From the NCBI GenBank assembly GCA_030612485.1, contig JAUWNS010000035.1, forward strand, positions 1 to 17,928: 17,928 nt of DNA, in the 5' to 3' direction. Below are positions 2,641-17,928 of this stretch, piece after piece (position 1 is the first letter of the stretch; every line of letters begins with the position of its first letter). The DNA is from Candidatus Bipolaricaulota bacterium. GTDB taxonomy: Bacteria; Bipolaricaulota; Bipolaricaulia; UBA7950; UBA9294. The notes under the pieces are model-generated. The model was given only the letters and a program-made list of their open reading frames with translations, was not told the origin of the DNA and did not search any database. A program made the position numbers and the translations under genes.

Positions 2641-5100
2641 TTGCATAGACATAACTTGTTGGTCTTATTGGTGGCGCTATCGTTGGTTTTTACCCTAGGT
2701 TCTCTGGTGGTTGCGGATCTGCCACAGGGTGTACACCTGGGATGGGAGATAAATGACATCAACACCACGATGTCGTTCGTATGGTATACCGATGAGTCCA
2801 CAACTGCGAGCCAGCTTCTCTACGACACGCAGTCAAGGGGCGGCGACGAAGGCTTGTACGCATTCTCAACAACGGCTGATAGCCCCATGGTGATCATCGG
2901 ACAAGATGGGGACGAAGAGGGGTACACGTACAAGGCGACACTCACCGGGCTTACCCCTGGCGTTACATACTACTTTGTCTGTGGCGGTCCCGATGGATAC
3001 ACCGAGGAGTTCATGTTCCACACCGTTCCTAGCGACCTGGAACGGATAAGGTTCATCGTTGGCGGGGATACACGTCAAGGAGCTTTGGACTTTCCAGAGG
3101 GACGGAACAAGACCGCGTTGTTGCAAGCCCAGCACGATCCCTGCTTCATGATCCACGTGGGAGACCACATCGAGAAATCCTTCGACGCTGGAGAGTGGAA
3201 GGAGTACAGTCGGCACCTTCAGGAGTACTACGTTGACACTCAGGGACACCTGATCCCGATTTTGCCGATCATAGGAAACCACGAGGTCGGACGAACCGAA
3301 GCTCCAGAGGGTGACTATACGGTTCCAGAGACGGGCTTCTACGAGTTTGAGATCACCAAGGAAGATGCACGCCTCTACTACCAGTTCTTCTGCATGCCCG
3401 AGCCGAAACGATGGTACGCATTCGATATCACCAAGGATCTGCGTTTCTTCGAGCTCAACTCCGAAACCTATAGCGATCCTGCATATCCGGAGACCGAGCA
3501 GCTCGGATGGTTCACAAATGAGGCCAGTGCATCAGCAGATGTAACGTGGAAGCTCGTGGGTTTTCATAGGCCCGCGTTCGAGGAATACGGTGGACAGGGC
3601 AAATCTGTAAACTTCCTACCGCTGCTCGATCAGTTCGACGTCGATGTGGCCATTTCCGGACACGAGCACTTCTACGCCAGGATGACCCCGATTGACGGCA
3701 CAGTGCACATAATCGCCGGAGGAGGAGGAGCTCCTCTCTCACAGGCTTATCCAAAGTCGTGGCACGCTTGCGGACCCATCTCTCAGTACAGCTACACGAT
3801 CTTCGAAGTCTCACCCGCAGACCTCCACGTAGTGGCCTACAACGTGGACAATAAAGTCATTGACGAGATCACTCTGCACAAGGGAGTTGCTAGTTCCGAG
3901 ACGTTCCTCCGTACCCGTGGCGAGGGTTCCTATGCTGCCGATAACATCGGGCCGCCGCCGCTTGTCGCGTACTCTGCGGGCACCTACCCCGAGATCGCAA
4001 CATTCGGCAAGGTGGGGAATGGCAATGTGATTGCTGCCGGTCTAGCCTGGAACTGCATCAACGGCTACTGGAAGCTAGGGCAGTACGATGTACTCTTCGA
4101 CATCATGTTCCAGCACTTGAACGCCGGGGCAACCAAGGTGCTGTGGTACGAGGGCTACGGAGTGGCGCACGATACAACCGCGTGCTCGGAGCTCGTCACC
4201 GCGCTTGGCAACCTGGGATACACAGTTGTTGGTGATGCCACGGAGCCGATAACTTCTGCCTTGCTCGCCGAATACGACATAGTGATCATTCCGCAGCTTC
4301 GTCTTGGCTCGTCCTATGTCGGCGGTGACCCGAACCAACTGCCTTGGGAAGACGTCGAGGCGATCAGGGAGTTCGTGGCTAGTGGCAAGGGGCTCATGGT
4401 CATGGATGCGCACGACTACGGTGGAAACAACTGGGCCTTTGTCCAGAACAAGGTCCTCGAAGGGATCGGCTCTGACGTCGCCCTTCAGTCCGACGGGGTC
4501 TACGATTGGGCCGATAACTGGCTGGGTCGCGGTTGGCATCCGATGGGTGCAGTTGATCCATCTACGCCCATCGGCGCTGAGTACGTGGCGCGAACGGGCG
4601 GTGTCGAGATCGAGCTTTGGGAGGTATCGACTGTTGTACCGATACCTGCCTTCTTCCTCGAGAAGGTCGCGGCTGGCATAAGGACAATTGTAGACGGCCG
4701 GAGAACGGGTGCAGATGCCCGAGTTATCATTGAAACGCTGGACGGTGGCGAGGGCTACGTGCGAATCCAGAGGGAGCCCGACCTTGCTGTAGCTGAAGGT
4801 GGCGGAGAGGGATACAGTGCTCTGAGTGGACCCACTGCTGCCGGAACGCTGGTCGTGGTGGATGTTACTACAGACATCTCTGGCTCACTGATCGAGTGGC
4901 CTATCACGATCGAGGTGTACTACACCCAGGAAGCCTTCGACGCATCTGGATTCGAGGACGAAGCTCTTCTCGCACTGTTCTACTGGGATACCGAACAGGG
5001 AATGTGGCGAGCATGTCCGGAATCCGGCGTCAACATTGAGCGCAACTGCGTGGCGGCAGCGACGTACCACTTCACCCGCTTCGCCATCATGCGGAAGTAG
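2641..5100 (+). CDS. Secreted purple acid phosphatase-like metallophosphoesterase with C-terminal amidotransferase-like domain
   Basis: An 819-residue exported protein. I chose TTG 2641 because AAGGAGG (2629-2635) sits 5 bases upstream and the product begins with a clean signal peptide (hydrophobic residues ~6-24, cut after VVA). ATG 2626 is in frame but has no ribosome-binding site. Residues ~27-128 form a fibronectin-III-like domain as in purple acid phosphatases. Residues ~135-410 form the calcineurin-like metallophosphoesterase core, with all metal motifs visible: GGDTR (D143), GDH (D175), GNHE (N213/H214), FHRP (H309) and GHEHFYAR (H341, H343). Residues ~497-640 look like a class-I-amidotransferase/ThuA-like fold (KVLWYEGYG, YDIVIIPQ, EAIREFVASGKGLMVMD) without an obvious catalytic cysteine. 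The last ~70 residues resemble a surface-protein beta domain ending YHFTRFAIM. It probably hydrolyses phosphoesters outside the cell; the substrate is unknown. A hairpin terminator follows at 5134. Confidence 0.85.
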   Translation: MHRHNLLVLLVALSLVFTLGSLVVADLPQGVHLGWEINDINTTMSFVWYTDESTTASQLLYDTQSRGGDEGLYAFSTTADSPMVIIGQDGDEEGYTYKATLTGLTPGVTYYFVCGGPDGYTEEFMFHTVPSDLERIRFIVGGDTRQGALDFPEGRNKTALLQAQHDPCFMIHVGDHIEKSFDAGEWKEYSRHLQEYYVDTQGHLIPILPIIGNHEVGRTEAPEGDYTVPETGFYEFEITKEDARLYYQFFCMPEPKRWYAFDITKDLRFFELNSETYSDPAYPETEQLGWFTNEASASADVTWKLVGFHRPAFEEYGGQGKSVNFLPLLDQFDVDVAISGHEHFYARMTPIDGTVHIIAGGGGAPLSQAYPKSWHACGPISQYSYTIFEVSPADLHVVAYNVDNKVIDEITLHKGVASSETFLRTRGEGSYAADNIGPPPLVAYSAGTYPEIATFGKVGNGNVIAAGLAWNCINGYWKLGQYDVLFDIMFQHLNAGATKVLWYEGYGVAHDTTACSELVTALGNLGYTVVGDATEPITSALLAEYDIVIIPQLRLGSSYVGGDPNQLPWEDVEAIREFVASGKGLMVMDAHDYGGNNWAFVQNKVLEGIGSDVALQSDGVYDWADNWLGRGWHPMGAVDPSTPIGAEYVARTGGVEIELWEVSTVVPIPAFFLEKVAAGIRTIVDGRRTGADARVIIETLDGGEGYVRIQREPDLAVAEGGGEGYSALSGPTAAGTLVVVDVTTDISGSLIEWPITIEVYYTQEAFDASGFEDEALLALFYWDTEQGMWRACPESGVNIERNCVAAATYHFTRFAIMRK

Positions 5101-5171: not shown

Positions 5172-5280
5172 CGTTCTGGGCACAACAAATACTTATCAAT
5201 TCTCATTTTGAGTGAGCCACTCGAAGTTGAATCAAAAGGAGGGTCTGATTCCCCGCTCCTTGGGGCGGTTTACGGCGAAT

Positions 5281-5305
5281 ACCTGAAAACATCTGATTTT
5301 CAGGT
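5281..5305. repeat. Perfect short hairpin (9-bp stem)
   Basis: ACCTGAAAA (5281-5289) and TTTTCAGGT (5297-5305) form a perfect stem around a 7-base loop. It lies at the 3' end of the transposase remnant, where REP-type palindromes are commonly found. There is no T-run to make it a terminator. Confidence 0.5.
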
Positions 5306-5317
5306 GATACCTCTTGA

Positions 5318-5341
5318 TACCCCGTTTGCTTGCGGTGGGTA
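5318..5341. repeat. Degenerate REP-like palindrome
   Basis: TACCCCGTTTGC (5318-5329) and TTGCGGTGGGTA (5330-5341) form an imperfect stem-loop. GCAAGC-type loops between C-rich and G-rich arms are common in RAYT-associated REP units. The call rests on this shape and on the adjacent RAYT remnant. Confidence 0.3.
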
Positions 5342-5679
5342 GTTCATTCCCTCTCAATAGCGATTTCATCGGCTCCGCAAATTCTTCGGTTCCGAACAGA
5401 ATCCCGCCCTTCAGATCATCCCACACGGAAACATCTCGCCTCTCCTTCACAAACCGGCGATACGCAGCACGCGCGCACGTTAAATCATCATCGAACTGTG
5501 ACAAGATCCAATATACGGTCAGGAATCCAGGCGGCTTTGCTTCCCCCACCGTACTACAATAGCTACTCTGTAAATCCACTTCCGAGGCCAGGCCTGCCTG
5601 CGCTCACCGTCCTCAGCAACCTTTCCCAGAAAGCCTCGTACCCCTATGGCAAAACGTATTGGCTGAGTTCATCTCTCCC

Positions 5680-7111: not shown

Positions 7112-7976
7112 TTAGTCATCCAATCTGAAACGATAGATCGGTTGCCTTACCCCTTCGCTCAGGGTGTAATAGAAACGGCCATCAGGAGAGAAAGCGATCG
7201 CCTCACCCTGTGGTTCCACTTTCAGAGGAAGGGGGCAACCATCCTCGGAGAAGATCGCAGATAACGGTAACCCATTTTTTCTCTCTCATATGGTAGCATT
7301 GAAATAGCCGCACACGATGATTCTCTTCCCGTCTTGAGAGACGTCTCCCCCAGTAGTGATCCCGACCCACGGAAGCTTCGCGACTCGCAACAGCATTCCG
7401 TCGTCAGAGGCTCTATACATAAGACCGCCCCACTTGGTGATGATGTAGATCCCTCCATCTACTGGGTCAACAAGAAGCGTCTCTGCATCTTGTGTCCGAT
7501 CGGGATAATTAAGAACGATCCTCTCGACTCGATCGACCAATACGTTTTGCGTGTCTTCGTCGACAAAGAGGTTCAGGGAATCGGTAGATCTCGACCTTTT
7601 CGCGCGAAAACCCGTTATCGCCGATGTCGGCAACATAGATGTAGTCGAGCCCGGGTTCTGGCCCCGGACCAATGGCAATATCCTCCCAGTCGATAGAATT
7701 AACGTCTACAAGAATGAAAGTAGCGACGAGCCTGCCATCGGGCGCAAGCGCGTACACCCGCGCAGAATCGCCCGAGTCGTTATGCACCCATAGGATACCA
7801 GGGTTATTTCTGCTTAAGACCATTCCCGACGCCTCATTGATGAGAGGGCTTTCCACACGGGCAAACTCGACCACCTCTGTAACATGGGGACAACGACCTG
7901 CTGCTACCAATACATACGAAGCGATGATGATGGAAAAAAGAGAGAAGCACGAGAAACCTTTGTCTACTCTAAGCAT
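7112..7976 (-). pseudogene. Secreted beta-propeller-like protein, broken by a frameshift and an in-frame stop
   Basis: If repaired, this would encode ~287 residues. ATG 7976 has GGGGAGA 6 bases upstream and the product starts with a signal peptide (hydrophobic ~9-27). The body reads like an NHL/esterase-like beta-propeller: INEASGMVLSR, ILWVHNDSGDSARVYAL, IDWEDIAIGPG, YIYVADIGDN, then TQDAETLLVDPVDGGIYIIT and, at the end, EPQGEAIAFSPDGRFYYTLSEG. Two lesions interrupt it. An extra base near 7565-7567 (run AAA on the plus strand) moves PEP... into the wrong frame. A TGA at 7286-7288 then follows FNATI, where the flanking pattern suggests a tryptophan codon. The frame after the TGA is the original one and runs to TAA at 7112-7114. 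Function unknown; probably extracytoplasmic. Confidence 0.75.
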
Positions 7977-8185: not shown

Positions 8186-8596
8186 TCACAAGCTCTTGAA
8201 TATCCGCGCAAGCGAGCGACCCGGCGCCTCCAGGTGCAGGTCAAGGAAGAACCCGAATGGGGTCTGCGAGACTTCGTAACCCGCTCCCGCAAGCCTCGCT
8301 TCCGCGTTCGACAGAAGGTCCTTGGTGAACTCCGGGGTCGCTTTCCCCTCCGCAAGGTGAGCGAATGAGTGGAGAAGGATTCGGTCTGTCCCGTTCTTTC
8401 GCGCCGCCCACTTCAGGTTCTTGACCAGACGCGTCTCGACCGCCCCAGCCTCGGCTTCATCCTGTGGCTCAGCGTGGATGAATCCGACCAAGACATCCTC
8501 AACCGTTCGTTCCTCGACCCAATCCTCCTCGGACTCCAGTGTCTTGATGGTGGTGCGATATCCAAAATGGGTGGTGTAGATCATCACGAGTTTCAT
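8186..8596 (-). CDS. Stand-alone threonyl-tRNA synthetase editing-domain protein
   Basis: A 136-residue protein that matches the archaeal-type ThrRS editing domain (tRNA-Thr_ED fold, related to D-aminoacyl-tRNA deacylase) across its whole length, with no synthetase attached. Visible family features are the N-terminal strand MKLVMIYTTHF, the middle strand VLVGFIHAEP (~35-44), ILLHSFAHLAE (~73-83, with the conserved His) and TPFGFFLDL (~111-119). In archaeal ThrRS the last motif is APFGYYKAF, whose Lys helps catalysis; here it is Leu, so classical Ser-tRNA(Thr) editing is doubtful. It starts 6 bases after the serine palmitoyltransferase-like gene and is almost certainly co-transcribed with it. 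The cellular substrate is unknown. Family assignment is firm; activity is inference. Confidence 0.75.
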   Translation of the reverse strand: MKLVMIYTTHFGYRTTIKTLESEEDWVEERTVEDVLVGFIHAEPQDEAEAGAVETRLVKNLKWAARKNGTDRILLHSFAHLAEGKATPEFTKDLLSNAEARLAGAGYEVSQTPFGFFLDLHLEAPGRSLARIFKSL

Positions 8597-8602
8597 TCTT
8601 CC

Positions 8603-9820
8603 TCAGATGATCCCTTCCGCCTTACCGACCTCTTTGAAGGTGTCGAGGACCTGCTCCATCTCCTCGTCGGAGTGGGTCGCCATGTAGCTCGTGCGAAGAA
8701 GAGCCTTCTCCGCTGGCACTGCGGGCGGGACAGCAACGTTTGTGTAGACACCCGCCTCGAACAAGGCCTTCCAGAACTTCAACGTCCTCATCTGATCACC
8801 GATCATGATCGGGACGATCGGGGTCTCGCTCTCGCCGACGTCGTAGCCGAGGTCGCGATAGCTCCGGCGCATCCGCGCTGCGATGGCATTGACGCGATCC
8901 ACCCGCTCGGGCTCGCTCTCCATCACCTTGAGCGAGGCGAGCGCAGCAGCGACGTTCCCCGCGGGAAGGGCGGCGCTGAAGATCATCGAACGGGCCATGT
9001 GCTGGATCCAGTGGATCGTCGTTTCCTCTCCTGCGATGAATCCTCCGATGGAAGCAAAGGACTTGCTGAACGTTCCCATGATGAGATCGACATCACCTGT
9101 TACGCCGAAGTGTGCAGCGGTCCCCTTCCCTTGCCCAACGACCCCTATCCCATGCGCATCGTCGACCATCAGGCGTGCCCCGTACTGCTGACAAAGCGGA
9201 ATGATCTCCAAGAGCGGGGCTATCTCCCCGCTCATGCTGAACACCCCATCGATCACCACGAGCTTCCCTGCCTGGTCAGGACAGACACGCAGAATTCGTT
9301 CCAGATCCTCCATGTCGTCGTGCCGGAACCGCTGCAGGCGGCCGAGCGCCAGGCGGGAGCCATCGACGAGGCTGGCGTGGTTCTCCTTATCGCCGATGAT
9401 CACATCGTTGCGGCCGATCAGGGCCGAGAGGGTGCCGAGGTTCGTCTGGTAGCCGGTGGAAAAGACGAGGGCCTTCTCCTTCCCCACAAACCGGGCCAGT
9501 CTCTCTTCCAACTCGTTGTGCAACGCAAGGGTCCCGTTCAGGAACCGCGAACCAGTGCAGCTCGTGCCGAACTCGCGCACGGCATCAATCGCCGCCTGCC
9601 GCACCTTGGGGTGCGCCGTTAGCCCGAGGTAGTTGTTCGACCCGATCATAATCAGGCGCTGCCCATTCACCGTCACCTGCGTCCCTTCTGCCCGGTCCAG
9701 AGGGATAAAGTAGGGGTAGAGGCCCATCGTTTTAAACGATTGAGGGTTCATCGGATACCCCATCGCCTGTGCTACTGCTGGATCAGAGAAGAATCCCCGG
9801 CATTTTTCGAATATGTCCAC
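8603..9820 (-). CDS. spt: Serine palmitoyltransferase-like alpha-oxoamine synthase (PLP)
   Basis: A 405-residue fold-type I PLP enzyme. It starts with GTG, with AGGAG 10 bases upstream. Family residues are all visible: GSRFLNGT (~90-97), NHAS (H148, stacks on PLP), VDDAHG (D220, H223), TFSKS (K253, Schiff-base lysine) and LLRTSYMATH (R376, carboxylate binding). Among alpha-oxoamine synthases (Kbl, BioF, HemA, Spt) it best matches, from memory, Bacteroidetes-type serine palmitoyltransferase. Shared features are a YPYF start, GSNNYLGLT, DLIMGTFSKSFASIGGFIAG and IFSAALPAG. The expected reaction is serine plus acyl-CoA to 3-ketosphinganine, cytosolic, the first step of sphingolipid synthesis. The SDR gene directly upstream could supply the next, reductive step. 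Kbl (2-amino-3-ketobutyrate ligase) remains possible, but there is no threonine dehydrogenase gene here. Confidence 0.8.
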   Translation of the reverse strand: MDIFEKCRGFFSDPAVAQAMGYPMNPQSFKTMGLYPYFIPLDRAEGTQVTVNGQRLIMIGSNNYLGLTAHPKVRQAAIDAVREFGTSCTGSRFLNGTLALHNELEERLARFVGKEKALVFSTGYQTNLGTLSALIGRNDVIIGDKENHASLVDGSRLALGRLQRFRHDDMEDLERILRVCPDQAGKLVVIDGVFSMSGEIAPLLEIIPLCQQYGARLMVDDAHGIGVVGQGKGTAAHFGVTGDVDLIMGTFSKSFASIGGFIAGEETTIHWIQHMARSMIFSAALPAGNVAAALASLKVMESEPERVDRVNAIAARMRRSYRDLGYDVGESETPIVPIMIGDQMRTLKFWKALFEAGVYTNVAVPPAVPAEKALLRTSYMATHSDEEMEQVLDTFKEVGKAEGII

Positions 9821-9836
9821 TATACGTTTTCTCCTA

Positions 9837-10652
9837 TTATACCTTATAGTATTTCATCAATCCCCACTCGAACAGTTTGCTCGGGAGAATTCCTTTAAGA
9901 ATAGCTGCTACGCGCTGCGAGGCCTCGCCGGTCGAGTAACGCACCTTAGGAGAGGAATCCTGGAGGATCCGATGAAGAAGACGGGCGATTCTCTCCGGGG
10001 AAGACCCACCCTCTTCGTCCGACTCTGCCACCTTAAGCGCACGCTGGAATCGCTCTTGATAGGCAGAATCTTCCTTTGATGCGGCCGTGTATACGCGGTT
10101 ATCGGTGAACCCGGTGCGGAAATCCCCTGGCTCGATCAGGGCAACCTTGATTCCGAACGGTTTCACCTCCATGCGGAGTGCCTCGGTCACTCCCTCTACC
10201 GCAAATTTAGTTGCACTGTACAATCCCTGATACGGAAGGCCGATCCTCCCTGCAAGCGAGGAGATGTTGACGATAATTCCCGAGCCCTGCTCTCTCATCT
10301 TGGGGAGTACCGTCTGGCAGACCCGTAACAGCCCAAAGAGGTTCGTCTCGAAGAGCGCTCTTACCTCCTCGATCGAGGTTTCTTCTATTGCGCCGGCAAT
10401 ACCAAATCCCGCGTTGTTGACCACGACATCAAGCCGTCCCGCATCCTGTAGAACTCTATCGATACCCGAAACGACCGATCGATCATCGTTCACATCCATC
10501 CGAACCATACGGACTGAGCCGTCTTCTACAGGATCATCACCTGTGATCTTCCGGCTCGTCCCGTAGACTCGGTAGCCGTGTTCAGCCATATACCGCGCGC
10601 ACGCCTTCCCTATGCCCGATGAGGCTCCTGTGATCAGGATCACCCTTTCCAC
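9837..10652 (-). CDS. Short-chain dehydrogenase/reductase, candidate 3-ketosphinganine reductase
   Basis: A 271-residue classical SDR from GTG 10652, which has a G/A-rich ribosome-binding site (GGGGGAAG) just upstream and places the first beta strand at the N-terminus. The frame is open to 10778, but that start overlaps the -35 box, and the added residues are not SDR-like. ATG 10721 is an alternative. Motifs are TGASSGIG (8-15, nucleotide binding), R34 after strand 2 (favours NADPH), NNAG (79-82), N104, NISS (S132), and YSATK (Y145, K149): a complete catalytic tetrad. The C-terminal ~35 residues (LPSKLFEWGLMKYYKV) are typical of lipid-active SDRs. The stop lies 16 bases before the serine palmitoyltransferase-like gene, so the two are co-transcribed. 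Reduction of 3-ketosphinganine is inferred from this pairing only. Confidence 0.8.
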   Translation of the reverse strand: MERVILITGASSGIGKACARYMAEHGYRVYGTSRKITGDDPVEDGSVRMVRMDVNDDRSVVSGIDRVLQDAGRLDVVVNNAGFGIAGAIEETSIEEVRALFETNLFGLLRVCQTVLPKMREQGSGIIVNISSLAGRIGLPYQGLYSATKFAVEGVTEALRMEVKPFGIKVALIEPGDFRTGFTDNRVYTAASKEDSAYQERFQRALKVAESDEEGGSSPERIARLLHRILQDSSPKVRYSTGEASQRVAAILKGILPSKLFEWGLMKYYKV

Positions 10653-10749
10653 CGCTTCTTCCCCCTTCCCCTTTGTCAATAGCACGTCCTCTGGAGAACA
10701 CTTCCCTGCACGGGGTGACATTCTCAAATGACCGAACGAACGTGAAAAG

Positions 10750-10778
10750 AGTGTAGACGTCTTTCGCTTGCTTTTCAA
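10750..10778 (-). promoter_or_regulatory. Sigma-70-type promoter of the SDR-spt-editing-domain operon
   Basis: On the minus strand TTGAAA (10778-10773) and TACACT (10755-10750) are separated by exactly 17 bases. Transcription would begin near 10743, about 90 bases before the GTG start at 10652. Its position argues against starting the SDR protein at 10778. Confidence 0.5.
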
Positions 10779-12146: not shown

Positions 12147-13924
12147 TCACGCTCCCATAGGCTTATTCATCTCGTCGATCATCCCTTCGATCACGTCGAA
12201 TCCACCACGCCAGAAGGAGGCCGAGGTCATATCGATTCCGGCCTCGCTCAGGATCTCCTGCAGGCTCTTCGACCCGCCATGGGCGAGGATCTTGAGGAAC
12301 TTGGGGACGAACTCCTCCCCGTCCTCTTTGTACTGCCTGTAGAGGGAGAGGACGAGAAGCTGTCCGAAGCTGTAGGCATAACAGTAGAAGGGGACGGAGT
12401 AGATGTGCGGAATCGAGACCCACTCCCAACGAAACTCGTCGCTCACCTCGACAGCATCGCCGAATTGCTCCTTGAGGTTTGCAAGGTATCGCTCCGCCAG
12501 AGCGTCTGTCGTCGCCCCTTCCTCGATCAGGGCGTGTGCCTCGCGCTCGAAGAGGACGAAGTAGGCCTGGCGCATCACTGTGGCATAGGAGCCATCGACG
12601 AACCGAGCCAGTGTATCCCGCCGCACAAGGGGATCGGCCTCGTGTTGTAGCTGGTGTTCGAGGAGGAGGATCTCGGAGAAGATGGATGCTGTCTCGGCCA
12701 ACGGGAGAGAGGAGTGGAAGGTGAGCGGCGAGTGATCGGAGGCGATCAGTGCGTGCATAGCGTGGCCCAACTCATGAGCTAACGTGGAGAGGTCGTTCCC
12801 CTTCCCGTTGTAGCTTGTCAAGACCCACGGGGTCATCCCTGGGAGCACCCCGTGGCAGAAGGCACCGCCGATCTTCCCGAGCCGAACCTCGGAGTCGAGG
12901 TGCCCCTCGTCGAGAACGCGCCTCGCGTGATCGGCCAGGATAGGGGAGAAGGCGGTGAGGCTCTCTAAGATGGTCGTCGTCGCCTCATCGAACGGATAGG
13001 TCCTTGCAGACTCACTCAGTGGGGCGTAGAGGTCGTAGCGGCGGAGCTGTTTCATCCCCAGCCAGTTCGCCTTCAGCCGGAAGTAGCGCTGAAAGAGACC
13101 TCTATTCTCTTGACAGACTTCAAGGAGGGTCTCGACGACGGGACCGGGGATATCATTTACCAGGTTTCGAACGGCGATCGGCGATGAGAATCCCCGGAGG
13201 GTGATCTTCTCATCGGCCCAGTTGCGAACGATGTGTTGATAGACCTGGCCGAGGATCGTGCTCTCCTCCCCGTAGACACGGTAGAGCTCCTTGTAGATCG
13301 CCTCTCTGACTCGGGGGAGGGATCAAAGGCGTAGGCCATCAGTTCGGAGCGTGTCAGGACCTTTTCCTCCCCATCGATCTCGATACGAAAGGCGAAGCGG
13401 GTCGTGATCATATCGTAGAGGGAGGTCAGCGCATCGACGCCGTTTTCATCCTTCAGGTTGATGAGCTTCTCCTCGGGCTCGGAGAGGGTGTGTGGTCGGA
13501 AGCGACGCAGCGATTCGAGGTAGTAGGAAGCGTCCCCGCTCGCTGGGAGGAGACGCTCGGCAGTCTCGTCGTCGAGCCCCTTCCACCACAGATCGAGGAA
13601 GAGCGTCCTGTTCCGCGCATCTGTCAACACCTTCTCGATCCTCCCGCGGAAGGCAAGTGCGTCTTGATTTGTAGTATCCTCGGCGAACCAAAGGGAGGCG
13701 TATCCCCCCAGCCTCCGGGAGAGTGCTCCGACCTCCTCGATAAGAGAGACTATATCCGCAAACTCGATCTCTGATATTCCCTCACTCAGGCGGTCGCGCC
13801 ACCCTTCGAGCGCGACAACTACCTCCTCAAGGCGGGCCGTGAATCTCTCAAGATCCTTACCCGTTCGCGATTGAAGCAGATCTGTGAGGGACCATCGTTC
13901 CGATTTGTAGGTTTGTTCGTTCAT
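12147..13924 (-). CDS. M3-family oligoendopeptidase (PepF-like), interrupted by a -1 frameshift
   Basis: With one base restored this is a ~592-residue M3 metallopeptidase, the usual size of the oligoendopeptidase F group, cytosolic and acting on short peptides. ATG 13924 has GGGGAG 6 bases upstream; an upstream ATG at 13948 overlaps the previous gene's stop and lacks a site. The N-terminal helical region runs to AYAFDPS. There a run of five G (13313-13317 on the plus strand) is one base short, and the frame that continues the family (RVREAIYKELYRVYGEE...) is a different one. That second frame stays open to the TGA at 12147 and holds the active site: HELGH (12776-12762, residues ~384-388) and the third zinc ligand in AETASIFSE (E411). 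A homopolymer base-calling error is as likely as true inactivation. It shares an operon with the HD gene upstream, 23 bases away. Confidence 0.85.
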
Positions 13925-13947
13925 CGTGCTCTCCCCTTCTTCACTCA

Positions 13948-14535
13948 CTACGTGGGTTCGATCGTCCCTGCAAGGCCGATCGCTGTTGCGACCCTGCGCA
14001 TCCCCATGATCACATCCTCGAACAGGTCTTTAAGCTCCATCCCCAACATCTGCGCTCCCTGCTCGATCACCTCGCGGTTCGCCCCCGCGGCGAAGCTCTT
14101 GTCCTTCCACTTCTTACTGACCGACTTGACCTTCATGTCAAGGACGCTGTGCGACGGGCGCACAAGGGCCACCGCTGTTACGAGGCCGGTCAGCTCGTCG
14201 ATTGCGTAGAGGACCTTCTCCATCTCGTGTTTTGGCTCGACATCGGTCACGAGCCCCCAACCGTGTGACATCACCGCGTGGATGTACTCCTCGGGCCAAC
14301 CGTGCTCTGTCAATATCTCCCTCGTCTTTGCGCAGTGTTCCTCTGGGTAGCGCTCGTAATCGAGGTCGTGGACAAGGCCGATGACCCCCCACTTCTCCTC
14401 GTCCTCGCCGCGCTTTTGCGCCATGTAACGCATCACCCCTTCCACGCTGAGGGCATGCTTGATCAGGCTCTCACTCTTGTTGAACTCCTTGAGTAGTCTG
14501 TACGCCTCTTCTCTAGTCGGTACATGAGTCGGCAT
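13948..14535 (-). CDS. HD-domain metal-dependent phosphohydrolase
   Basis: A 195-residue soluble protein. Its HD-superfamily residues are in order: SLIKHALSVE (H27), GLVHDLDYERYPEEH (H56-D57), MSHGW (H91) and AIDELTGL (D113). These are the metal ligands of the fold. The C-terminal third is helical (DLFEDVIMGMRRVATAIGL). ATG 14535 follows AAGGGGGAG. Such small HD proteins hydrolyse phosphoester bonds, usually in nucleotides, but the substrate cannot be read from sequence. It is the first gene of a two-gene operon with the M3 peptidase, and a candidate promoter lies at 14582-14611. Confidence 0.85.
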   Translation of the reverse strand: MPTHVPTREEAYRLLKEFNKSESLIKHALSVEGVMRYMAQKRGEDEEKWGVIGLVHDLDYERYPEEHCAKTREILTEHGWPEEYIHAVMSHGWGLVTDVEPKHEMEKVLYAIDELTGLVTAVALVRPSHSVLDMKVKSVSKKWKDKSFAAGANREVIEQGAQMLGMELKDLFEDVIMGMRRVATAIGLAGTIEPT

Positions 14536-15589: not shown

Positions 15590-16933
15590 TCAGTCTCCCG
15601 GGATGATCTCGGTCTTCTCGATGAACTTGATCCCCATCGACTCGAGTTCGGCCAGGACCGGCTCGTAGATCTCAGGGATCACCGGGACCTGTACCCCTGT
15701 GAGGTCGATCTTCCCCTGCAGGATCAGGCGCGTCGCGATCGCCGCAGGTAGCCCCACGGTGCGCGACATCGATGTATCGCCGTGCGGGACCCCGTAGTCG
15801 ATCATCGTGGAGGTCGTCTTCTCAGTGCGGTCGGGGTACTCGGCGATGAATTCGTGCTGCATCACGAGGAGGTCGCGTTCACCCGGAGCGTACTGCATCT
15901 TATCGAGCATTCGCACTGCCAGCACATCGAGTGGGGATTTTGCTCCCTCAGGGAGAGGCTCATCGCTCAAGAACCCGAGCCACTCAAGGTTCGAGATGAC
16001 GCGCGAACCCTCCTCTATCTTCAGGAACGAGGCAAGGCCACTCTTCAGGTTCTCCTTCGACCGGCCAATCAGCTTGGCGGTCAAGTCGGCAAAGGTAAGG
16101 CCGGCAAGGTCTGTTCGCTCCGCCTCATCGAGGAGGCCCAGTTCAGCGATCTTCTTCAGCGTCTCGCACCAGCCCGGGTAGCGGAGTGTCCCGCGGAACA
16201 TGCTCTTCACCCCTTTTACCCCGTAAGTCTCGATGTACGGGATGCTGTCGCGGTTCGGGTACCCCTCTAGCGTACCGAACCCCTCGATCTCGACCGGGGA
16301 GTGGTGGGCGAAGAGGTCCTCACCGGAAATGTCGACGACCTTGCCATCCCTCAGGTAGCGAGCCGGGTTCTTGCCGGCGAGGATCACCCCGCGAGGGCTC
16401 CAGGAGAACTTGTACCCGTAGGGATTGTCGTTCGCATCCGGCGCAGGTAGCCCCCCGCAGTAGGAGGTGAAGCTTACAAGCTCCCCACCGCTACGTCTGA
16501 TCCTATCGATCACCTGCATCGCCGACATGTGATCGATCCCCGGGTCGACGCCGATCTCGTTCAGCAGGATCACACCCGCTCTCTTTGCATCCTCGTCGAG
16601 GGCCAGCATCTCATCCTTGACGTAGGACGCAGTGACCATCATCTTCTTGTGCTCGATACACATCCTGGCAACGAGCGGGTGGTAGACGTACGGAAGGAGG
16701 CTGATCGAGAGGTCCGCTTCGCTAATGAGTCTCTCTAAGGCCTTCTCATCGCTCACATCCAGTTGCTCGGCAATCCCGTTCTTCGCGCTACCGACGAGTT
16801 TTTGCGCCTTCTCCAATGTCCGGCTCGCGACCTTTACCTGGAAATCCTCCTGATCGAGGAGGCCTACCTCGAGGAGGTAGTGAACCAACGGTCCGGTGAC
16901 AAGACCGGCACCAAGAACCAGTACTCTCTTCAT
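15590..16933 (-). CDS. Saccharopine dehydrogenase (LYS9/AASS C-terminal type)
   Basis: A 447-residue cytosolic enzyme. The N-terminal Rossmann fold opens MKRVLVLGAGLVTGPLVHYL. Next come the family motifs LLPYVYHPLVA, MMVTASYV and LLNEIGVDPGIDHMSAM. The catalytic domain has SYCGGLPAPDANDNPYGYKFSWSPRGV (~residues 160-190), IPYIETYG and TLRYPGWC. This matches the glutamate-forming saccharopine dehydrogenase of the lysine pathway, which converts saccharopine to 2-aminoadipate 6-semialdehyde and glutamate. ATG 16933 follows AGAAGGAG. It lies 35 bases after the lysine-ketoglutarate reductase-like gene, so the two halves that are fused in animals and plants (AASS, LKR/SDH) are encoded here as an operon. 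The direction, lysine breakdown versus synthesis, cannot be fixed from the window, but this pair is usually catabolic in bacteria. Confidence 0.9.
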   Translation of the reverse strand: MKRVLVLGAGLVTGPLVHYLLEVGLLDQEDFQVKVASRTLEKAQKLVGSAKNGIAEQLDVSDEKALERLISEADLSISLLPYVYHPLVARMCIEHKKMMVTASYVKDEMLALDEDAKRAGVILLNEIGVDPGIDHMSAMQVIDRIRRSGGELVSFTSYCGGLPAPDANDNPYGYKFSWSPRGVILAGKNPARYLRDGKVVDISGEDLFAHHSPVEIEGFGTLEGYPNRDSIPYIETYGVKGVKSMFRGTLRYPGWCETLKKIAELGLLDEAERTDLAGLTFADLTAKLIGRSKENLKSGLASFLKIEEGSRVISNLEWLGFLSDEPLPEGAKSPLDVLAVRMLDKMQYAPGERDLLVMQHEFIAEYPDRTEKTTSTMIDYGVPHGDTSMSRTVGLPAAIATRLILQGKIDLTGVQVPVIPEIYEPVLAELESMGIKFIEKTEIIPGD

Positions 16934-16968
16934 CTTTCGCTCCTTCTGGGCGCGTGCCCACCGTTTTG

Positions 16969-17928
16969 TTATAGGTACCTCTCGATATAGCGGTAATCCG
17001 GGGTCAGTTTGCCGCGGTAGGCGATCATCGCCCGCTTGATCTCCGGCGGAAGATCGCAGGACGCGAAATCCCCGCTGTAATCGGCCGCAGCGATCGCTGG
17101 GACGTACCCCTTCAACACACTACTGAAGTACGCGGAGGATTCCCGTGGCAGCTCGCTGGGGAGGATCTCCACCGCCATCACCACCGGCCCGTTCCCCGCG
17201 ATCCCGTCGATCGCCTTGTCGGCCACAGGATCGTAGACATAGACCGGATTATCCGGCTCGGTCGCCTTGACCGTGCACTCGATCGCCCCCTCCACATCGC
17301 AGGTGATATCACCGATCACTTTTAGGCGTGGCCCAGTCGGGCGCGAGCCGTCGCCGCGATATAGCCCTCGCACCGTCTTCTTGGAGAAGAGGCGTGGGTA
17401 GCGCGGCTCCCAGTAGATGCAGTTCACAAGAATATCCAGGTGGGGAAGGTAGCGTTCAAAGACACCGCGATAGCGTTCGGGGTGGTCGTAGTACTCCTGA
17501 AGGTCGAACGGCTGATCCCCCTCCCGTCGTTCGACCATATCCTCCTCCTTGAAGACGCCCTTGTAGACGCCCCTATTAGAGGCGTCCTTTGCCTTGCTCG
17601 GGGGGTGTAGTAAGTCCAAAGTGTTACTACACCCCCCAAGCGCGGCGAGTTCTCCAGGTGCGATCTCCGTCACAGGGAGGAGGTTGAGGATCTCCTGCGC
17701 CCCGTGGGAGACGTTCCCGTACCCCGCGATCCCAACGACAAACGGGGTAATCTCATTGGGTAGCCCATTTCTCTCGATTTGCTTGCCGATCCCACGGATT
17801 GCCTCTTTCGCCGTACCGAGATCGGGGTAGTCGAGGGCGCGCTCGACCTCCTCAAAGGGGTTAGGCGTTCCCTCGAAAGCGAGCCGCTTCCCGAACGCCC
17901 ACAGCGTCTCGATCATCCCGGCGAGGCC
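16969..17928 (-). CDS. Lysine-ketoglutarate reductase-like protein (partial; runs off the window)
   Basis: The 3' part of a gene whose start lies beyond the right edge: the frame is open through 17928 (reading GLAG before MIETLW), and homologous reductases have a further N-terminal domain. The visible 319 codons match the second half of lysine-ketoglutarate reductase (AASS/LKR N-terminal half). Motifs are AGMIETLWAFGKRLAFEG, VVGIAGYGNVSHGAQEIL (nucleotide-binding fold), VYKGVFKEEDMV, YYDHPERY, LVNCIYWEPRYPRL, IGDITCDVEGAIECTVKAT, NPVYVYDP and the tail TPDYRYIERYL. The enzyme joins lysine and 2-oxoglutarate to saccharopine with NADPH and would feed the dehydrogenase encoded next. An extra segment (GGCSNTLDLLHPPSKAKD) before VYKGVFKEED is encoded by a DNA palindrome at 17596-17641. 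Confidence 0.85.
   Translation of the reverse strand, partial: GLAGMIETLWAFGKRLAFEGTPNPFEEVERALDYPDLGTAKEAIRGIGKQIERNGLPNEITPFVVGIAGYGNVSHGAQEILNLLPVTEIAPGELAALGGCSNTLDLLHPPSKAKDASNRGVYKGVFKEEDMVERREGDQPFDLQEYYDHPERYRGVFERYLPHLDILVNCIYWEPRYPRLFSKKTVRGLYRGDGSRPTGPRLKVIGDITCDVEGAIECTVKATEPDNPVYVYDPVADKAIDGIAGNGPVVMAVEILPSELPRESSAYFSSVLKGYVPAIAAADYSGDFASCDLPPEIKRAMIAYRGKLTPDYRYIERYL
17596..17641. repeat. Palindromic insertion inside the reductase coding sequence
   Basis: Arms 17596-17613 and 17624-17641 are inverted copies over 18 bp with one mismatch (core GGGGGGTGTAGTAA, perfect over 14 bp) around a 10-base loop. The element lies in frame within the coding region and keeps it open. A second small hairpin (GACGCC/GGCGTC, 17566-17571 and 17581-17586) lies next to it. 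Both fall in a stretch that interrupts an otherwise well-conserved protein. Confidence 0.65.

What the first reader, a model, noticed from the sequence alone, without database searches (positions are those of the whole stretch)
8186..10778. Possible sphingoid-base operon: SDR, serine palmitoyltransferase-like enzyme and a tRNA-editing-domain protein
Three minus-strand genes are packed with gaps of 16 and 6 bases behind one good promoter. The oxoamine synthase carries Bacteroidetes-Spt-like sequence (GSRFLNGT, DLIMGTFSKSFASIGGF) and the SDR has a complete catalytic tetrad plus Arg after strand 2. That is known logic for 3-ketosphinganine synthesis and reduction. The third gene, a stand-alone ThrRS editing domain, normally recognises serine on tRNA. 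Its coupling to a serine-consuming enzyme is unexpected, and I do not recall it being described. A role in serine or acyl-serine quality control, or in hydrolysing a side product, is speculation.
Basis: partly seen in the sequence, partly recalled or inferred. Interest (0 to 1): 0.7.

Follow-up and report, generated by a model that had tools for sequence, protein, structure and literature searches.

The report
Sphingoid-base gene pair beside editing-domain protein
Two neighbouring bacterial genes very likely make the backbone of sphingolipids, while the third gene, a stand-alone relative of an archaeal tRNA proofreading domain, is an unstudied protein found in many bacterial groups that sits beside them in one lineage but survives there without them.

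Summary
The three packed minus-strand genes are real. SDR + SPT-like is a sphingoid-base pair: the SPT-like enzyme falls on the serine palmitoyltransferase side of a tree, has Ala at the Spt/SulA diagnostic site, and its SDR neighbour best matches 3-ketodihydrosphingosine reductase. SDR lies beside SPT in 22 of 25 close Bipolaricaulota loci. Both score below NCBIfam's equivalog cut-offs. The third gene is a stand-alone PF08915 protein with the archaeal ThrRS editing-domain fold. The exact three-gene order was found in none of 100 Bipolaricaulota genomes; 3 have one gene between. In a close relative a scrap of SPT remains just upstream of an intact editing-domain gene: the adjacency is old there, but the third gene does not need SPT. 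The family has lost the lysine that positions the catalytic water in archaeal ThrRS (Leu in 194 of 199) and has its own invariant residues. In seven or eight phyla it directly precedes a gene of one Sir2 subfamily; yet 10 of 11 Bipolaricaulota carriers lack Sir2. ThrRS editing motifs and DTD are usually present too, so it seems to replace neither. Best reading: a third, unstudied branch of the fold, substrate unknown.

The parts
9837..10652 (-). SDR reductase, KdsR-like (3-ketosphinganine reductase); longer TTG-start ORF reaches 10778
   Evidence: NCBIfam NF049977 best hit 329.6 bits (cut-off 400), domain from residue 44; GTG start with purine-rich upstream; beside SPT in 22 of 25 Bipolaricaulota loci with SPT at least 65% identical
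8603..9820 (-). SPT-like alpha-oxoamine synthase (PLP Lys253, His148, Asp221, His223, Asn62, Arg376, Ala283)
   Evidence: NF047600 best hit 500.5 bits, cut-off 640; 390 bits to Sphingobacterium SPT; residues; trees
8186..8596 (-). stand-alone PF08915 protein, bacterial subfamily of the archaeal ThrRS editing-domain fold, Leu118 in place of Pab Lys121
10750..10778 (-). promoter-like site TTGAAA-17-TACACT, weak
   Evidence: 9 of 12 matches; 3 sites found in the region against 1.4 +/- 1.2 in shuffles

Best explanation
Two things share one packed array. (1) SDR + SPT-like: the PLP enzyme condenses an amino acid, most likely L-serine, with a fatty acyl thioester to 3-ketosphinganine, and the SDR reduces it with NADPH to sphinganine (inferred from residues, tree and adjacency; no enzyme or lipid was measured). 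(2) The third gene belongs to a separate, widespread bacterial branch of the ThrRS-editing-domain/DTD fold. It most likely still hydrolyses an ester on a ribose next to a free hydroxyl, as its relatives do on aminoacyl-tRNA, but through a remodelled pocket (Leu for the water-positioning Lys, Arg for Glu134, conserved His80) and on a substrate not yet known. Its position behind SPT is inherited genomic neighbourhood in part of Bipolaricaulota, not a dedicated sphingolipid function.
For: SPT side: best NCBIfam hits SPT and KdsR; 390 bits to Sphingobacterium SPT, 234 to E. coli Kbl 1fc4, 241 to a cysteate acyltransferase; catalytic residues; Ala at the site that is Lys in SulA, PMC9304779 passages; window in a 25-row Bipolaricaulota clade, 100/100 and 100/99; SPT side against Kbl, HemA and BioF 92/79, and against Kbl and HemA 98/95 with six long rows, both BioF among them, left out; SDR beside SPT in 22 of 25 loci with SPT at least 65% identical. 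Editing-domain side: 1826 relatives, 120 listed; 399 loci, best 80 kept; SPT near it in 3 of 80 loci, all Bipolaricaulota, plus a 35% AOS 5 kb away in L070; 11 of 100 genomes carry the family; contexts differ; SPT relic, 20 residues, 18 as in the window's SPT and 8 as in that genome's own AOS paralogue, directly upstream of an editing-domain gene 89% identical to the window's; SPT in 6 of 11 carriers against 26 of 89 others, Fisher p 0.17; fold and pocket; catalysis by tRNA 2'-OH, Lys positions water, PMC4491819 passages.
Against: SPT and SDR both miss NCBIfam's equivalog cut-offs. Six further Bipolaricaulota SPT loci (54-58% identical, L115-L120) show no close SDR within the 1.5 kb flanks or less that were held. 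None of the 14 window ORFs scanned gave a ceramide-synthase or acyl-carrier match, and three of them gave no Pfam and two no NCBIfam match at all. In two Bipolaricaulota groups the editing domain lies 3' of SPT on the same strand, or did so (window, G004-G006, relic in G002), so a loose functional link is not excluded. K121M is severely impaired in three archaeal enzymes (PMC4491819), so the bacterial branch might not hydrolyse aminoacyl-tRNA at all; no activity was tested.
Confidence: 0.7

Rival explanations
1. The editing-domain protein serves the sphingoid pathway (serine or acyl-serine quality control, or hydrolysis of a side product).
For: 6-base gap to SPT in the window; SPT-gene-editing-domain order in G004, G005, G006; SPT relic upstream of it in G002.
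Against: Gene kept intact after SPT loss in G002 and G001; 5 of 11 carriers have no SPT match and 26 of 32 SPT genomes lack it; SPT near it in 3 of 80 loci (loci are 3-16 kb long, so distant linkage could be missed). G001 is a small assembly, so absence there is weak.
Confidence: 0.08
2. It is a trans-editing deacylase for a mischarged tRNA, a third tier beside ThrRS and DTD.
Against: ThrRS with its own editing motifs was seen in 22 of 30 carrier genomes searched (5 gave no ThrRS match, 3 only partial ones) and DTD in 9 of 11 and 14 of 15 carriers, so there is no obvious gap to fill; Lys121 is lost; I saw no tRNA synthetase among the recurrent neighbour clusters listed (read by eye; tRNA genes not searched).
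Confidence: 0.4
3. It works with a dedicated sirtuin, hydrolysing the acyl or aminoacyl ester of ADP-ribose that sirtuins release (a ribose ester with a free neighbouring hydroxyl).
For: Sir2 directly downstream on the same strand in 21 of 79 loci and beside 12 of 16 editing-domain matches in Cloacimonadota; the sirtuins of these loci, from eight phyla, fall in one clade, 100/99, apart from other sirtuins of the same genomes.
Against: In the window's phylum (by nearest relatives) Sir2 is found in 1 of 11 carriers against 52 of 89 non-carriers, Fisher p 0.0026 without correction for kinship, and G007's Sir2 is outside the linked clade. Most of the 79 loci (58) have no Sir2 directly downstream. 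The clade holds five sirtuins from genomes without an editing-domain match. Linked rows were drawn from one similarity cluster. No chemistry tested.
Confidence: 0.15
4. It is a catalytically inactive binding protein.
For: Loss of the water-positioning Lys in 199 of 199 (Leu 194, Met 3, Ile 2).
Against: Catalysis in the fold is by the substrate's 2'-OH and Met stands there in DTD (PMC4491819 passages); the pocket residues are almost invariant across phyla.
Confidence: 0.15
5. The PLP enzyme uses an amino acid other than serine (for example cysteate, alanine or glycine).
For: Score under the SPT equivalog cut-off; the family is catalytically versatile (established knowledge).
Against: Ala283 is the Spt state, SulA has Lys; tree; KdsR-like partner.
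Confidence: 0.12

Closest known systems
Bacteroidota-type serine palmitoyltransferase (Sphingobacterium multivorum SPT, PDB 3a2b) with KdsR (BT_0972)
   Same: Catalytic residues, Ala at the SulA/Spt site, best family hits for both genes
   Different: Below both equivalog cut-offs; a deep Bipolaricaulota clade; SDR directly beside SPT
Archaeal ThrRS N-terminal editing domain (Pyrococcus abyssi, 1y2q)
   Different: Free-standing, bacterial, Lys121 to Leu, Tyr120 to Phe, Glu134 to Arg, own invariant Lys/Trp/Asn set; found beside a ThrRS that has its own bacterial editing motifs in 22 of 30 genomes searched
D-aminoacyl-tRNA deacylase (DTD)
   Same: Same fold, free-standing, non-polar residue at the Lys121 site
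   Different: 9-19% identity in the structure rows; 9 of 11 and 14 of 15 carriers have a separate DTD as well

Membership tests
Serine palmitoyltransferase | PLP Lys, stacking His, Asp/His pair, Asn or Tyr, carboxylate Arg | tested here: met
   Lys253, His148, Asp221, His223, Asn62, Arg376 aligned with 3a2b; shared with the whole AOS family, so not specific
Serine palmitoyltransferase | Ala, not Lys, at the SulA Lys281 site | tested here: met
   Ala283; Ala also in 3a2b, 2x8u, 2jg2; Asn in E. coli Kbl, Thr in E. coli BioF and Rhizobium HemA; rule from PMC9304779 passages
Serine palmitoyltransferase | Groups with SPT, not Kbl/BioF/HemA | tested here: met
   92/79 with all 63 rows (short of the tool's star); 98/95 against Kbl and HemA after dropping six long rows, both BioF included
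Serine palmitoyltransferase | NCBIfam NF047600 equivalog cut-off (640 bits) | tested here: not met
   500.5 bits; 0 of 9 carrier genomes of other phyla reach it either, 1 of 14 control genomes does
Serine palmitoyltransferase | Forms 3-ketosphinganine from serine | not testable with these tools
   needs an enzyme assay
KdsR 3-ketosphinganine reductase | NF049977 equivalog cut-off (400 bits) | tested here: not met
   329.6 bits, best of 226 families
Archaeal ThrRS editing domain | PF08915 match and fold | tested here: met
Archaeal ThrRS editing domain | Lys121 that positions the catalytic water | tested here: not met
   Leu118; Leu 194, Met 3, Ile 2 of 199
Archaeal ThrRS editing domain | Part of, or partner to, a ThrRS that lacks another editing domain | tested here: not met
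   free-standing; ThrRS editing motifs present in 22 of 30 carrier genomes searched; the window's own ThrRS could not be looked for; the Caldisericaceae genome G109 has only a 425-aa ThrRS frame without that region and is an unresolved exception
DTD | Gly-cisPro motif | not tested
   motif known from abstracts listed; not examined in the model
Conserved SDR-SPT-editing-domain operon | Three-gene order kept in relatives | tested here: not met
   0 of 100 genomes of the phylum strictly; 3 of 100 with one gene between SPT and editing domain; SPT relic in G002

The most novel reading that the evidence does not exclude
Bacterial stand-alone ThrRS-editing-like proteins are a new branch of ribose-ester hydrolases that, in seven or eight phyla, form a two-gene module with their own sirtuin subfamily and clear its O-acyl- or O-aminoacyl-ADP-ribose product, linking a proofreading fold to protein (amino)acylation; lineages such as the window's use the same enzyme for a related ester without a sirtuin.
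Probability: 0.13. Interest if true: 0.85.

Novelty: new variant of a known kind. Interest (0 to 1): 0.48.

Why it matters
It adds a phylum-level clade of likely sphingoid-base makers (SPT in 32 of 100 genomes; no held paper joins 'Bipolaricaulota' with 'sphingolipid'). It also draws attention to a large bacterial protein family that carries a tRNA-editing name but lacks a residue important for that activity in archaea, keeps a different invariant pocket, and in many phyla has a sirtuin neighbour of one subfamily. A single deacylation panel would decide among the readings.

Tried and rejected
Considered and dropped: (a) the editing domain as a dedicated sphingolipid gene (relic and distribution). 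(b) It fills in for a ThrRS without editing: ThrRS motifs present in 22 of 30 carrier genomes searched. (c) It replaces DTD: DTD present in 9 of 11 and 14 of 15 carriers. (d) A general sirtuin dependence: contradicted in Bipolaricaulota, although carriers and Sir2-less genomes there seem clustered by kinship, so the p-value overstates independence. (e) Saccharopine/lysine genes as partner: of the 80 loci only L012 (the same place as L187) has them, and in the window they lie 7 kb away. Literature: searches (editing-domain phrase with sphingolipid; PF08915 by name; Bipolaricaulota with sphingolipid) gave 0 papers; one search's terms were too broad; one search listed 17 papers on ThrRS/DTD editing, of which passages of one were read. 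Searches listed sirtuin and aminoacylation papers; none was opened and none of those listed has a title or abstract start that describes this pairing. 'Not in print' is claimed only for those searches of the held open library.

Limits: no genome is held for the window, so nothing elsewhere in its own genome (ceramide synthase, Sir2, ThrRS) could be looked for. Completeness values were not given for the genomes. The 80 loci are the best of 399 by similarity to the query and vary from 3 to 16 kb. One of the 80 (L012) and the window had no editing-domain ORF picked by the naive gene caller, so one search counts 79. G056's 33% match (L132) was left out of the 11 carriers. In the sirtuin tree two short linked rows (L018, L064) were dropped and three Cloacimonadota linked rows added; 'linked' there means in the same locus, which for L013, L023, L030 and L068 is two or three genes away rather than next door. 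Phylum names: 'Bipolaricaulota' is the phylum of G002 (L002's title), although one of its genomes, G093, matches a record titled Neomarinimicrobiota (L015); 'Cloacimonadota' is the phylum of G108 (L033).
Full report
What is there. The window holds three minus-strand genes packed as described: an SDR ending at 9837, an SPT-like PLP enzyme at 8603-9820 and a 136-residue protein at 8186-8596, with gaps of 16 and 6 bases. The SDR start needs correction: its domain begins at residue 44-45 of the TTG-10778 reading frame, and GTG 10652, behind a purine-rich stretch, is the likelier start. The promoter-like site lies at 10778-10750 and scores 9 of 12; three such sites were found in the region where shuffles give 1.4 +/- 1.2, so it is weak evidence by itself.

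The nearest relatives with names are Candidatus Bipolaricaulota/Acetothermia (editing-domain identity 88-89% to L001 and L002). No genome is held for the window itself.

The sphingoid pair. The PLP enzyme's best NCBIfam model is Bacteroidota-type serine palmitoyltransferase (500.5 bits, cut-off 640) and the SDR's is 3-ketodihydrosphingosine reductase (329.6 bits, cut-off 400). Both miss the equivalog cut-offs, so I call them SPT-like and KdsR-like. Among solved structures the PLP enzyme scores 390 bits with Sphingobacterium SPT, 318 and 279 with two Sphingomonas-type SPTs (organism names recalled), 241 with a cysteate acyltransferase and 234 with Kbl 1fc4. The catalytic residues Asn62, His148, Asp221, His223, Lys253 and Arg376 are in place, and residue 283 is Ala, as in Spt, where sulfonolipid SulA has Lys (rule from passages of PMC9304779). 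A 63-row tree puts the window enzyme in a Bipolaricaulota clade of 25 rows (100/100), on the SPT side of a branch (92/79, just short of the tool's star) that leaves out Kbl, HemA and BioF. With six long rows dropped, the two BioF references among them, that branch has 98/95 against Kbl and HemA. SPT is found in 32 of 100 genomes of the phylum at E 1e-100 and a close SDR in 25 of 100 at E 1e-65. The SDR lies directly beside SPT in 22 of 25 loci with SPT at least 65% identical; two of the other three are cut by contig ends, and L081 (G009) has 1.4 kb upstream without it. Six further SPT loci at 54-58% identity (L115-L120) show no close SDR in the flanks held. 3-ketosphinganine reductase BT_0972 is the experimental precedent (outline and abstract of PMC9278070). 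Serine as substrate, and the lipid product, are inferences. Of the 14 window ORFs scanned none matched a ceramide synthase or an acyl carrier.

The telling case is L002. Between PhoH and the editing-domain gene it keeps a scrap of SPT: 60 bases at 78% identity (E 1.8e-6; local score 59 against a maximum of 31 in 200 mononucleotide shuffles). Its 20 residues match the window's SPT at 18 positions and that genome's own AOS paralogue at 8. L001 keeps a still shorter scar, which taken alone scores no better than chance (21) but lies at the same place in nearly the same sequence. Neither genome has an SPT match at E 1e-100. So SPT once stood where it stands in the window, was deleted, and the editing-domain gene stayed at 88-89% identity. 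The adjacency is inherited, and the gene's function does not need SPT. Against a pure accident: a same-strand position 3' of SPT is also seen in G004-G006, so the neighbourhood is old in part of the phylum.

What the family is. In 199 aligned members (the 120 listed proteins and 79 loci) the residue at archaeal Lys121 is Leu in 194, Met in 3 and Ile in 2; Tyr120 is Phe in 199; Glu134 is Arg in 198; His83 is kept in 199; and Lys59, Lys62, Trp63, Lys67, Asn68 and His76 are invariant, none of them so in the Pyrococcus sequence. These members are the closest to the query, so more distant ones may differ. In archaeal ThrRS, K121M is severely impaired because the lysine positions the water, Tyr120 and Glu134 are dispensable, the tRNA 2'-OH is catalytic, and DTD has Met at the lysine site (passages of PMC4491819). 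So hydrolysis remains possible, but the archaeal function cannot be carried over. ThrRS with HxxxH and DxCxGxH editing motifs was seen in 22 of 30 carrier genomes searched; 5 gave no match and 3 only partial ones, of which G109's 425-residue frame may truly lack the domain. The motif names are recalled from E. coli ThrRS. DTD is present in 9 of 11 carriers in Bipolaricaulota and 14 of 15 in Cloacimonadota.

A different neighbour. Sir2 is the gene directly downstream on the same strand in 21 of 79 loci, and a member of that Sir2 cluster occurs in 25 of 80 (Pfam of one member). The directly adjacent cases come from seven phyla as labelled (Myxococcota, Cloacimonadota, Fermentibacterota, Ignavibacteriota, Caldisericota, Calditrichota, Bacteroidota) and from a Desulfobacula record (L064). 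In Cloacimonadota, read, the family gives 16 matches in 15 of 124 genomes, and a Sir2 match begins 60-66 bases downstream in 12 of the 16; a thirteenth is 2 kb away, two genomes show no Sir2, and one second copy is unlinked. In a tree of 44 sirtuins the 26 linked ones (those seven phyla, Fidelibacterota, and one unplaced record) lie in one clade of 31 (100/99) with five from genomes without an editing-domain match, apart from other sirtuins of the same genomes and from CobB. They were drawn from one similarity cluster, which favours a clade. Sirtuins release a ribose ester with a free neighbouring hydroxyl (established knowledge), the kind of bond this fold cuts, hence the novel case. Against it: in Bipolaricaulota only 1 of 11 carriers has Sir2, against 52 of 89 others (p 0.0026, kinship not corrected), that one is outside the linked clade, and 58 of the 79 loci have no Sir2 next door.

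Verdict. The sphingoid pair is a new member of a known kind in a phylum for which the held library gives no sphingolipid paper. The third gene is a new variant of a known fold whose name may mislead. The suggested serine-chemistry coupling is unlikely (about 0.08).

Noticed in passing
L022, L031, L033, L039, L061, L079 and others; Cloacimonadota genomes G108, G178, G225, G238: PF08915 stand-alone gene directly followed by a gene of one Sir2 subfamily, in seven phyla plus a Desulfobacula record.
   Followed up: yes
L002:6360-6429 and L001 about 3150-3167: Relic of SPT between PhoH and the editing-domain gene, shorter in L001.
   Followed up: yes
window 15590-17928 (-): Saccharopine dehydrogenase-like and lysine-ketoglutarate-reductase-like genes (named by eye from sequence; no NCBIfam hit). 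In L012/L187 the same pair lies directly beside the editing-domain gene.
   Followed up: partly
window 12147-13948 (-): A peptidase M3 gene may be split: 12147-13055 has the Pfam match, and 13157-13948 looks by eye like its N-terminal part (not scanned): frameshift or sequence error.
   Followed up: no
window 7286-7976 (-): Two overlapping minus-strand frames downstream of the editing-domain gene; the 7509-7976 frame has a 51% match (79 aa) at the same place in L002, so downstream synteny is kept although SPT was lost.
   Followed up: partly
window 5232-5579 (-): REP-type transposase-like fragment (by eye), 44% over 84 aa to a gene near the editing domain in L002.
   Followed up: no
G109 (genome of L039, Caldisericaceae), contig C4:8667-9932: ThrRS match of only 425 residues, without the N-terminal editing region, in a genome that carries the stand-alone protein.
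   Followed up: no
L196 (Priestia megaterium plasmid, 3001-4215): SPT-like gene on a Bacillota plasmid, 50% identical to the window's, NF047600 524.7 bits.
   Followed up: no
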